Below are positions 28,321 to 38,313 of a DNA stretch of 38,370 bases, piece after piece; within the stretch, counting starts at the first letter, position 1, and each line of letters opens with the position of its first letter. The notes beneath the pieces are model-generated. The model made no database searches, was not told the DNA's origin, and saw only the letters and a list, made by a program, of their open reading frames with translations. The DNA lies in the NCBI GenBank assembly GCA_017471045.1, contig JAFUWZ010000054.1:1-38370 (forward strand), read 5' to 3'. Source of the stretch: Bacteroidales bacterium. Lineage in GTDB: Bacteria > Bacteroidota > Bacteroidia > Bacteroidales > UBA932. Position numbers and translations under genes: made by a program.

Positions 28321-28462
28321 GGAGCCTCCGTCACTGCACCCAACGTCCCATCCTGACGGACGGAGGGCGCATTTTACCCCCTTTTTCGCTCTCAACGTCC
28401 CTCGTTTCGGGACGTTGGGAGCAGTGGCTAACTTCTCAGGCTAACCCCCATGCGGAGGCTCC
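28321..28462. repeat. Nested palindromic block with competing hairpins
   Basis: Three colinear pairings enclose one another: GGAGCCTCCG (28321-28330) with 28453-28462, CACTGC (28332-28337) with 28421-28426, and CCCAACGTCCC (28339-28349) with 28409-28419. A local hairpin, GCTCTCAACGTCCC (28388-28401) with GGGACGTTGGGAGC (28409-28422), uses the same right arm. CCTCCGTC (28325-28332) also pairs with GACGGAGG (28359-28366), the same stem as at 24452-24480. Confidence 0.65.
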
Positions 28463-32458: not shown

Positions 32459-33910
32459 CTAGACCAGCCGGGCGAGGAGCGTCGCGCTGGTGCAGTCCAC
32501 GACCTCCACCTCGACATAGTCGCCGGGCTTGAGCGGCGGCAGGGCGAGGGCACCCTCCCTTGCAGGATGCAGGGAAAGGACGCCCTGCCGGGCAGAATGC
32601 ATCCTGCAAGGGAGGGTGCCCTCGCCCTGCAGGTGGCCGTCGTTGCCCGGGACCGATGAGCGCTGCGGGAAGACGCACATCTTGTTGTTGGACGCGCGCC
32701 CGCAAAGCTCCGCCGGATTGCGCTTCGACGGCCCCTCCACCAGGACGGTAAAACGCTTGCCGACGTCAGCGCGATAGCTTTCCAGGCTCTTGCGGTTCTG
32801 CAGCGCGATGATCTCATTCAGGCGCCGCGTCTTGGTCGCCGGATCCACGTCGTCGGGATATTTGCGCGCCGCGATCGTGCCCGGACGCTCCGAATACTGG
32901 AACATGAACGCCGTATCGAACCCCACTTCCTCCATCAGCGACAGCGTCTGGGCGTGGTCCTCCTCCGTCTCGGAGCAGAATCCCGCGATCACGTCCGTCG
33001 TCAGGCCGCAGCCGGGCATCAGTTCCCGGATCCTGGCCACGCGCTGCAGGTACCATTCCCGCGTATAGCGGCGGCGCATCTTCCCGAGGATGCGGTCGCT
33101 GCCGGACTGGACCGGCAAGTGGATGTGCTTGCAGATGTTGTCGTGGCGCGCCATCGTCTCCAACACGGCATCCGAGATATCCTGCGGATTGGAAGTGGCG
33201 AAGCGTACGCGCAGCCGCGGGCTGATCTGCGCGACCCGCTCCAGCAGGTCGGCGAACGTCACGTCCGGGAGTCCCTCTTCTTTCCAAAGGTAAGAATCGA
33301 CGTTCTGGCCCAGCAGGGTCACCTCCTTGTAGCCGTTCGCAAAGACTTCGCAGGCCTCGCGCACGATGGTGCGGGGGTCGCGGCTGCGCTCCACGCCCCG
33401 GGTGTAGGGCACGACGCAGTAGGAGCAGACGTTGTTGCACCCGCGCATGATGGAGATGAAGGCGGAGACGCCGCTCCGGTCGGTCCGGACCGGGGAGATG
33501 TCCGCATACGTCTCGTCGCGGGAGAGGATGACGTTGATCTGCGGGCTGTCGGGACGCACGGCGGCAAGCATGTCCGGAAGGCTGCGGTAAGCGTCCGGGC
33601 CCGCGACCAGATCTACCTTGCGCGTCTCCAGAAGCTGGTCTTTGAGGCGCTCGGCCATGCAGCCGAGAATCCCGATGACCACGTCCGGACGCGCCTTCTT
33701 CTGCTGGTTGAAGACCTCGATCCGGCCCCAGATCCGCTGCTCGGCGTTGTCACGGACCGAGCAGGTATTGGCCATGATGACGTCGGCCTCATCCATGCGC
33801 TCGGTACGGGCATAGCCATGACGGGCCAGGATGGAAAAAATGACCTCCGTGTCATTGACGTTCATCTGGCATCCGTAGGTCTCGATGTATAATTTGCGTT
33901 GCTGAGCCAT
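32459..33910 (-). CDS. miaB: tRNA-2-methylthio-N6-dimethylallyladenosine synthase with an inserted palindromic segment
   Basis: From MAQQRKLYIETYGCQMNVND the protein has 483 aa. The UPF0004 domain holds three Cys for the auxiliary cluster (YGCQMN, NTCSVRD, LGCMAERL); the radical-SAM motif is MRGCNNVCSYCVVPYTRG (C-x3-C-x2-C), and QNVDSY, HLPVQSGS and DVIAGF follow. A TRAM domain ends the protein. The enzyme methylthiolates i6A37 in tRNAs that read UNN codons. Between VFPQ and KPGDYVEVEVVDCTSATLL, where relatives have about ten residues, there are about 43, including an in-frame 33-bp inverted repeat (32539-32630). Both sides of the insert stay in frame, so the enzyme may still work. A longer start at 33973 is upstream of its -7 box. 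Confidence 0.95.
   Translation of the reverse strand: MAQQRKLYIETYGCQMNVNDTEVIFSILARHGYARTERMDEADVIMANTCSVRDNAEQRIWGRIEVFNQQKKARPDVVIGILGCMAERLKDQLLETRKVDLVAGPDAYRSLPDMLAAVRPDSPQINVILSRDETYADISPVRTDRSGVSAFISIMRGCNNVCSYCVVPYTRGVERSRDPRTIVREACEVFANGYKEVTLLGQNVDSYLWKEEGLPDVTFADLLERVAQISPRLRVRFATSNPQDISDAVLETMARHDNICKHIHLPVQSGSDRILGKMRRRYTREWYLQRVARIRELMPGCGLTTDVIAGFCSETEEDHAQTLSLMEEVGFDTAFMFQYSERPGTIAARKYPDDVDPATKTRRLNEIIALQNRKSLESYRADVGKRFTVLVEGPSKRNPAELCGRASNNKMCVFPQRSSVPGNDGHLQGEGTLPCRMHSARQGVLSLHPAREGALALPPLKPGDYVEVEVVDCTSATLLARLV
32539..32630. repeat. 33-bp perfect inverted repeat inside miaB
   Basis: The left arm (32539-32571) begins GCAGGGCGAGGGCACC and is exactly matched in reverse complement by the right arm (32598-32630), which begins TGCATCCTGCAAGGGAG. 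The loop is 26 nt and has CGCCCTGCCG (32581-32590), which can also pair with the outer left arm (32537-32546). The whole element is read as protein in miaB. It has the form of a palindromic mobile element. Confidence 0.9.
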
Positions 33911-33933
33911 CGTATTCTGTGATAGGGTGCGGG

Positions 33934-33941
33934 CAAAGATA
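33934..33941 (-). promoter_or_regulatory. -7 element of miaB
   Basis: TATCTTTG on the minus strand, start near 33930, leader about 20 nt. It is back to back with the plus-strand element at 33963-33970, 21 nt away. Confidence 0.55.
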
Positions 33942-33962
33942 GGTTTTTTCGGTGAATATCCA

Positions 33963-33970
33963 TATATTTG
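33963..33970 (+). promoter_or_regulatory. -7 element of the lipoprotein-SPOR-rpoN operon
   Basis: TATATTTG ends 5 nt before ATG 33976, predicting a leader of about 2 nt. A run of six T (33944-33949) lies in the -33 area. Confidence 0.55.
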
Positions 33971-33975
33971 CACCT

Positions 33976-37161: not shown

Positions 37162-37237
37162 AGTTCGGTTGTATCGAGCCTGCAAGATAGCTCCCGCAAA
37201 CGGAAAAATCTTTAAAAAACATAAAAATATACCCGCC

Positions 37238-37307
37238 GAAGCGCTGTGCAGTTTCGGGAGCAGAATCTTTGCCCTTCGGGAAAGCTCCCGAAATTGCACG
37301 GCGCTTC
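37238..37307. repeat. 24-bp inverted repeat between radC and the HAD gene
   Basis: The arms at 37238-37261 (GAAGCGCTGTGCAG then TTTCGGGAGC) and 37284-37307 are complementary at 22 of 24 positions, one mismatch being a G.U in RNA. The loop is 22 nt. It lies upstream of both divergent genes, 77 nt from radC and 37 nt from the HAD gene. Confidence 0.85.
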
Positions 37308-37320
37308 AGCAAAAAAGTAT

Positions 37321-38240: not shown

Positions 38241-38313
38241 GGTAAGTGATCAACTTACCTTCAGTCAGTTACGAATTACCCTTGCAACGTTTGTCCGCAA
38301 GGGTAATTCGTAA
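38241..38313. repeat. Tandem hairpins after the HAD gene
   Basis: GGTAAGT-gatca-ACTTACC (38241-38259) is followed by a perfect 17-bp stem: TTACGAATTACCCTTGC (38269-38285) and its complement (38297-38313) with an 11-nt loop. No T run follows, so this is not a classical terminator. The remaining 57 nt to the window end show nothing I recognise. Confidence 0.8.

What the first reader, a model, noticed from the sequence alone, without database searches (positions are those of the whole stretch)
32539..32630. In-frame palindromic element inside miaB
A perfect 33-bp inverted repeat with a 26-nt loop lies in the TRAM domain and adds about 33-36 residues without breaking the frame. This is like the Rickettsia palindromic elements that insert into genes and stay translated; I know of no such case in Bacteroidales. 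Perfect arms suggest recent arrival. If other copies exist, this is a new class of protein-coding palindromic repeat.
Basis: partly seen in the sequence, partly recalled or inferred. Interest (0 to 1): 0.8.

Follow-up and report, generated by a model that had tools for sequence, protein, structure and literature searches.

The report
Palindromic elements inside Bacteroidales genes
A short, perfectly mirror-symmetric piece of DNA has slipped into a tRNA-modification gene without breaking its reading frame; it is one of dozens of relatives in this bacterium whose tip stays much the same from copy to copy while the two matching sides differ together, a new variant of a rare kind of genome parasite that sits inside protein genes.

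Summary
In detail: 33/33-bp arms at 32539-32571 and 32598-32630, 26-nt loop, in frame in miaB. The nearest relative is exactly 120 nt (40 codons) shorter there, and none of 107 measured relatives has so long a tail (30-52 residues against 73). AlphaFold2 leaves the insert disordered between two TRAM strands. It is not a single event. A covariance model built without the miaB copy finds 46 matches in the own genome, miaB included (E=7.9e-9), 34 and 39 places in two sister genomes, and none in six others of the genus. Other genomes carry hairpins with other caps. In each family the loop (cap) is conserved, while the stem (mostly 16-33 bp) differs from copy to copy yet stays nearly perfectly paired. 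Many copies sit in frame in housekeeping genes (dnaX, rsmH, cysS, fmt, atpG, radA, folC). At five sites shared by two species the arms differ but remain paired (30 of 37 changed pairs compensated), while some cap variants are shared by all copies of one genome. So perfect arms do not mean recent arrival. It works like Rickettsia palindromic elements but differs in anatomy. My reading: a selfish palindromic element whose stem is kept perfect by arm-to-arm copying; the mobiliser is unknown.

The parts
32539..32571 (+). left stem arm of the palindromic element (33 nt)
   Evidence: R1 match 32550-32619, E 7.9e-9, 4.8e-10
32572..32597 (+). cap (loop, 26 nt) with an inner mini-hairpin GCCC-TGCC-GGGC; the part shared with other copies
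   Evidence: mini-hairpin in the folds
32598..32630 (+). right stem arm (33 nt), exact reverse complement of the left arm
32459..33973 (-). miaB, tRNA-2-methylthio-N6-dimethylallyladenosine synthase, host gene; residues 440-476 predicted disordered between TRAM strands 432-436 and 486-494
32539..32630 (-). part of the MiaB reading frame made by the element: LQGEGTLPCRMHSARQGVLSLHPAREGALAL
37235..37310 (+). second member of the same family in the window, not assigned to a coding frame; loop AGAATCTTTGCCCTTCGGGAAA, arms 27 bp with 3 mismatches
   Evidence: (E 2.7e-10)

Best explanation
The hairpin in miaB is one copy of a dispersed family of small palindromic elements of this Bacteroidales genus. 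Each consists of a conserved cap (about 19-71 nt with one to three mini-hairpins, depending on the family) on a stem of mostly 16-33 bp. The miaB copy arrived after the split from the sequenced relatives and is tolerated because it keeps the frame and reads as a disordered loop between two TRAM strands (shown: absence in relatives, frame, other copies; inferred: translation and tolerance). After insertion the two arms drift but stay complementary, most likely because one arm is repeatedly copied onto the other by template switching or snap-back repair (inferred from compensated changes at shared sites). The cap is held constant by whatever recognises or copies the element; cap variants shared by all copies of a genome point to homogenisation or to a trans-acting factor (inferred). 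No benefit to the host gene is needed: the element behaves as selfish DNA.
For: Absent in relatives: of 109 other MiaB loci, 107 could be measured and have 30-52 residues after the anchor against 73 here; L012 is 120 nt shorter. Family: 46 R1 matches (E<=0.1) in the own genome, miaB included although not in the training set; G095 34, G188 40 (39 distinct places), six other genus genomes 0. Cap constant, arms variable: G019, 11 copies, mean loop identity 0.986 against left-arm identity 0.53; 30 of 31 copies picked by loop alone have at least 14/18 arm pairs, these 30 averaging 17.17 against 9.25 (maximum 11.17) with right arms shuffled. At five shared sites 30 of 37 differing pair columns are compensated on both sides. 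In frame: 18 of 31 loop2 copies pass a codon-usage test, none with a stop, 12 unclear, 1 at an edge; 17 of the 18 use 2 of 6 open frames, in which third codon positions pair with third positions. Inserts lie between conserved blocks of RsmH, HisH, prephenate dehydrogenase and CysS. Insert disordered: pLDDT below 50 at 440-476. A mild excess of inverted matches beyond the arms (12 of 75 with 7 bp or more against 6.4; 48 of 2000 shuffles reach it) fits templated copying. Template switching is described as homogenising inverted-repeat arms (PMC8604942, PMC8794818, abstracts).
Against: No mobiliser found: at 12 Y1-transposase loci the best R1 match is E 0.16. No target-site duplication signal in 75 elements. 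No spacer inversion in five shared-site pairs, which template switching would sometimes cause. Constant caps at old sites are not explained by arm copying alone. Shared sites were matched by flanks and position, not junction by junction, and could be independent insertions at favoured positions. One of 31 loop2 copies (L135) is only 7/18 paired in the common geometry; the hisH copy has only an 11-bp arm.
Confidence: 0.6

Rival explanations
1. Structured functional site: cap and stem are a protein- or RNA-binding DNA/RNA structure kept by selection at each place (chromosome organisation, replication or mRNA control); stems covary because the structure is selected.
For: Cap mini-stems also covary: GTCGC/GCGAC to GTTGC/GCAAC in 4 of 6 G069 copies; eight different paired forms of the middle mini-stem in the loop-B family, of which the search pattern itself fixed CCCA/TGGG. 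Cap kept at shared sites. Cloverleaf-like fold of one loop-B copy.
Against: In-gene copies lie in both orientations (9 sense, 8 antisense among 17), which speaks against an mRNA role; they sit in unrelated genes, and each cap tested is found in a minority of the genomes searched.
Confidence: 0.2
2. The stem is made anew at each insertion or re-insertion: only the cap travels, and each arrival writes a fresh palindrome. Shared sites are repeated arrivals at favoured positions.
For: Arms of paralogs with near-identical caps (0.53 identity in G019) are about as different as arms at shared sites (13, 12, 10, 8 and 12 of 18); some cap variants are genome-specific; fmt and cysS show the same six cap differences.
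Against: Arms share a weak consensus within a family; shared sites keep orientation in 5 of 5 pairs.
Confidence: 0.15
3. Classical MITE moved by a known transposase, the arms being terminal inverted repeats.
For: Size, palindromy and dispersal fit; RAYT-like Y1 transposases are present.
Against: Arms not conserved between copies; no target-site duplication signal; no R1 hairpin at 12 Y1-transposase loci, several of which have other short hairpins nearby.
Confidence: 0.08
4. Assembly or library artefact (fold-back chimera).
For: A few copies are cut by contig ends.
Against: Same family in several assemblies, same gene sites in different species with different arms, no stop in the 18 loop2 copies assigned as coding.
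Confidence: 0.02

Closest known systems
Rickettsia palindromic elements (RPE)
   Same: Small palindromic repeats that enter ORFs in frame, in unrelated housekeeping genes; orthologs share sites (PMC3767692 and PMC10969869, passages seen).
   Different: RPEs are recognised by sequence profiles trained on known RPEs (PMC3767692, passage); here only the cap is well conserved. RPE arms are reported to lose identity over time (PMC6649704, discussion read); here arms diverge but stay complementary. Reported from Rickettsia and Wolbachia (PMC3767692, passage), here Bacteroidales.
Coding palindromes of Nematomorpha mitochondria
   Same: Perfect inverted repeats in coding genes, kept perfect while the sequence varies; arm conversion or template switching proposed (PMC6649704, abstract and discussion read).
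   Different: There both arms encode conserved parts of the protein and I saw no shared cap or dispersed family in the parts read; here the hairpin is extra sequence with a shared cap.
REP/REPIN with RAYT
   Same: Dispersed hairpins in a genome that has RAYT-like genes.
   Different: REPs are described as 20-40-bp palindromic repeats sorted by shared sequence (PMC3733652, start of abstract in listing); the present hairpins are absent from 12 Y1-transposase loci and their arms are not conserved.
Bacterial MITEs with intragenic ORFs (ERIC, RU-1)
   Same: Small non-autonomous elements, some intragenic (PMC10969869 passages; PMC2759123 listing only).
   Different: No target duplication signal and no conserved termini here.

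Membership tests
Rickettsia palindromic elements | repeated palindromic element of about 100-150 bp | tested here: met
   repeated: 46 R1 matches; size 92 nt here and roughly 50-130 nt in the sets, so partly shorter than RPEs
Rickettsia palindromic elements | inserted in ORFs in frame | tested here: met
   miaB 120 nt longer than L012; 18 of 31 loop2 copies in frame by codon test, 12 unclear, 1 edge. Translation itself not observed.
Rickettsia palindromic elements | family recognisable by one conserved sequence over the whole element | tested here: not met
   left-arm identity 0.42-0.53 against cap identity 0.954-1.000 within four genomes
Rickettsia palindromic elements | sequence homology to a described RPE family | not tested
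   no RPE sequences were fetched; Ogata 2002 is not held
REP/REPIN-RAYT | hairpin associated with a RAYT (Y1 transposase) gene | tested here: not met
   12 of the 41 listed PF01797 matches examined, best R1 match E 0.16
REP/REPIN-RAYT | conserved arm sequence | tested here: not met
MITE | target-site duplication | tested here: not met
   75 elements: 3 with repeats of 4 nt or more against about 4.7 expected; 3-nt repeats 21 against 15.3, reached by 145 of 2000 shuffles
MITE | terminal repeats shared with a parent IS | not tested
   no search of insertion sequences by terminal repeat was made; arms differ between copies
Known structured RNA (Rfam 15) | match at gathering score | tested here: not met
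   window: only a tRNA elsewhere; seven loci: none; sub-threshold hits only

The most novel reading that the evidence does not exclude
A new class of mobile nucleic acid: the inherited and copied unit is a structured cap (one to three mini-hairpins, cloverleaf-like in the largest family), while the long perfect stem is not inherited but rewritten at each site. Caps evolve in concert across dispersed copies of a genome although their stems do not, which calls for a machinery that copies or enforces the cap. The hosts carry the palindromes as disordered loops inside essential enzymes.
Probability: 0.3. Interest if true: 0.92.

Novelty: new variant of a known kind. Interest (0 to 1): 0.78.

Why it matters
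In-frame palindromes in bacterial genes are known to me chiefly from Rickettsia and Wolbachia. Dozens per genome in a Bacteroidales genus, with stems that differ in both arms together while the cap stays fixed, give a natural test of how long perfect palindromes are kept in genomes (template switching or selection). Essential enzymes seem to have taken up new disordered peptides repeatedly, and it is open what moves and homogenises the cap.

Tried and rejected
Arm sequence as the repeat: no second copy. RAYT/REP as mobiliser: not associated at 12 loci. Known Rfam RNA: none at gathering score (sub-threshold 44, 92). Target-site duplications: no significant excess. Template copying beyond the arms: one 11-bp case (L154; 0.03 expected at that length) and a mild overall excess. 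A viral source: the exact loop2 23-mer has 0 matches in viral contigs. First coding test compared the wrong flanks for antisense frames; discarded and replaced. Loop-A pattern in 400 genomes: 10 matched, but only G000, G095 and G188 had real arms; the single matches of the other seven had arms of 3-8 nt.

Rows dropped or changed: 7 of 69 relatives were blank because my read-through stopped early; re-read 109 loci, 107 measurable (two did not fit the anchor). Some relatives are one species from two collections. Structure alignment A3 holds 25 of the 28 sequences first tried (L013, L066 and L088 dropped, L012 coordinates changed). Loop2 set: 31 of the 33 sites. A1 holds 13 of the 15 hairpins (the weakly paired L164 and L170 left out, which favours pairing in R1). 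G000 set: 45 elements, being 42 of the 46 R1 matches (left out: C63, C70 at a contig end, weak C49:38605, armless C33), one extra and two found by loop pattern. Loop-B: 15 distinct of 16 places (L375 repeats L374), one of them (L361) without arms. G188's 40 matches contain one place on both strands.

Full report
1. Observation. It folds far better than shuffles (-50.3 kcal/mol as DNA, z -11.5, 0 of 200; as RNA: -84.6, z -11.7). The minus-strand ORF 32459-33973 runs through it and is MiaB: PDB 7mjv over residues 21-438, NCBIfam TIGR01574 at 453.6 bits, cut-off 355.3, 89% identical to the MiaB of L012 in the alignment.

2. Empty site. In a first alignment 62 of 69 relatives could be read at the C-terminus and none has the insert. 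A second reading located MiaB in 109 other loci (some of them one species from two collections); in the 107 that could be measured the tail after the MCVF-type anchor is 30-52 residues, against 73 here. The longest, L112, and L053 have longer, unrelated linkers in which the census listed no hairpin. So the site is a length-variable linker, but the palindrome was not seen in another species' miaB. The nearest relative, L012 (a goat abomasum Bacteroidales MAG), is exactly 120 nt shorter between the same anchors. The hairpin accounts for 92 nt; about 28 nt beside it are also missing in L012. AlphaFold2 (25-sequence alignment, mean pLDDT 77.3) gives residues 440-476 below 50, between TRAM strands 432-436 and 486-494. 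A disordered, harmless loop is the natural reading; activity was not tested.

3. What repeats is the loop, not the arm. The whole element has no second full copy in the own genome, but its loop does: two further copies of the GCCCTGCCGGGC-type loop lie in one glycoside-hydrolase-like ORF (my recognition, no family call) on C13, each with different arms. A sister loop, GGAAAGAACCCTTCGGGGAA, occurs in G000, G095 and G188, mostly with arms above 20 bp that differ from copy to copy. A covariance model (R1) from 13 such hairpins, with neither of the two window hairpins among them, finds 46 matches (E<=0.1) in the own genome, including the miaB site (E 7.9e-9) and window 37241-37304 (E 2.7e-10); the two weakest are doubtful. 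It finds 34 in G095 and 40 in G188 (39 distinct places), and none in G019, G016, G013, G033, G003 and G012. Only 150 first-look candidates per genome are scored, so counts are lower bounds. R1 rewards pairing, so the pairing of its hits is not independent evidence. Of 45 own-genome elements, arms are 11-39 bp (42 of 45 between 16 and 32), with 0-6 mismatches; 33 of 45 have two or fewer.

4. Unbiased test of pairing. A second cap, loop2 (38 nt), was searched by loop sequence alone: 33 sites in 7 of 61 genomes, 0 in the reversed-pattern control. Of 31 sites read, 30 have at least 14 of 18 arm pairs, these 30 averaging 17.17; shuffling their right arms gives a mean of 9.25 and at most 11.17 in 2000 trials. 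The exception, L135, has 7. In G019 (11 copies) caps are on average 98.6% identical, left arms 53%; of 466 left-arm differences between copies 443 are perfectly paired in both. A third cap, loop B (62-71 nt, three mini-hairpins in the fold of one copy), gives 16 places in 7 of 61 genomes. Of 15 distinct ones, 14 have arms of 23-30 bp with 0-2 mismatches, all different, and one has none; the middle mini-stem takes eight paired forms, its CCCA/TGGG base being fixed by the pattern. Loop2 and loop B share the stretch GTCGCGAAGCGAC. So the class spans several lineages of the genus with different caps.

5. In genes and in frame. With a codon-usage test trained on 282 long ORFs (number printed), 18 of 31 loop2 copies are in-frame coding on both sides, 12 are unclear, 1 is at a contig edge, and none is coding with a stop. 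17 of the 18 use just two frames of six (9 sense, 8 antisense), read as SASLRDPVRANAP or GAFARTGSRSDAE, although the loop is open in all six. In these frames third codon positions pair with third positions, so compensated changes can be synonymous in both arms. Five more copies are unclear by that test but lie in ORFs named by homology, read in the same two frames: in rsmH and radA inside the matched region, in atpB, rnfG and fabD beyond its end. PDB alignments put the insert between conserved blocks of RsmH, HisH, prephenate dehydrogenase and CysS. In CysS, 20 other genomes lack the element, including G003, the closest; some have other linkers there. In the own genome 7 of 45 elements pass the same test, 36 are unclear, 1 is coding with a stop, 1 is at an edge; among the unclear, miaB, dnaX and two more hairpins in folC lie in ORFs named by homology. 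The hisH element is a weak one (11-bp arm).

6. Evolution at shared sites. Five loop2 sites are shared by two species each: fmt, an ORF that I recall as alpha-2-macroglobulin-like (no NCBIfam model), atpG, cysS and a membrane-like ORF (my recognition). Flanks are 68-85% identical; positions were compared, not junction by junction. Left arms agree at 13, 12, 10, 8 and 12 of 18 positions, yet pairing is 16-18 of 18 in every copy; of 37 differing pair columns 30 are compensated on both sides. Perfect arms therefore do not date an insertion. Caps behave otherwise: all five G028 copies carry C at cap position 24 where the other 26 copies carry A, four of them at sites whose partner species has A; fmt and cysS show the same six cap differences. 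Not every cap variant is uniform within a genome: G005 has three cap forms among three copies. Either caps are homogenised within a genome, or they follow a trans-acting partner, or sites are re-invaded.

7. Mechanism. Shown: insert absent in relatives, family membership, in-frame placement, compensated differences, near-constant caps. Inferred: arm-to-arm copying by template switching keeps the stem perfect. This process is described for inverted repeats in yeast genes and RNA genes (PMC8604942 abstract; PMC8794818 abstract and opening). For it: a mild excess of inverted matches beyond the arms (12 of 75 against 6.4, 48 of 2000 shuffles). Against a simple version: no spacer inversion in five pairs; in the dnaX linker two copies are sense and one antisense, but not clearly at the same position. 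The mover is unknown: Y1 transposase matches occur in carriers and non-carriers (13 of 16 genomes), the R1 hairpin is absent from the 12 loci examined, and no target duplication is seen.

8. Comparison with the known. It works like Rickettsia palindromic elements: in frame, in housekeeping genes, with shared sites among relatives (PMC3767692 and PMC10969869, passages). It fails the whole-element conservation criterion, and homology to RPE sequences was not tested. It resembles Nematomorpha coding palindromes in the upkeep of perfect arms (PMC6649704, abstract and discussion). The listings shown by the PMC searches named no such elements in Bacteroidales; only the top rows were seen and subscription papers are mostly not held, so a description elsewhere is possible.

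9. Limits. Translation and mobility are not observed.

Noticed in passing
window 28332-28426; L313 (own genome C30): A hairpin (28388-28422, GCTCTCAACGTCCC/GGGACGTTGGGAGC) nearly matches the hairpin beside a RAYT-like Y1 transposase ORF of the own genome: probably a REP/REPIN of that RAYT.
   Followed up: partly
L305, L307, L308, L310 (other genomes of the genus): RAYT-like ORFs with other short hairpins nearby, on either side of the match in L307, L308 and L310.
   Followed up: no
L235 (own genome C19), folC: Three palindromic elements within one folC ORF, all open in frame.
   Followed up: partly
L002 (own genome C13): Two elements with the miaB-type cap about 1 kb apart in one glycoside-hydrolase-like ORF, in opposite cap orientation.
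   Followed up: partly
own genome C49:1-52, C63:4954-5001, C70:52328-52360: Hairpins cut by contig ends, suggesting that they break assemblies and that copy numbers are underestimates.
   Followed up: no
L200:12016-12102 and L207:3673-3753: Two own-genome hairpins with yet another similar loop (GTCCATYCTCGCTKCGCTGCGGCTGA) and different arms.
   Followed up: no
L070:3453-3527: In a more distant Bacteroidales MAG, an 18-bp perfect hairpin just after miaB, whose loop shares the GGGYAAATGC motif with loop2.
   Followed up: no
L112 and L053: MiaB linkers at the same place about 20 and 11 residues longer than usual, without a listed hairpin: a naturally length-variable site.
   Followed up: partly
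window 38269-38313: Perfect 17-bp hairpin TTACGAATTACCCTTGC with an 11-nt loop near the contig end; not found by R1.
   Followed up: no
G005:C74:20246-21473: MiaB of G005 is found as two pieces with a gap between query residues 311 and 329.
   Followed up: no
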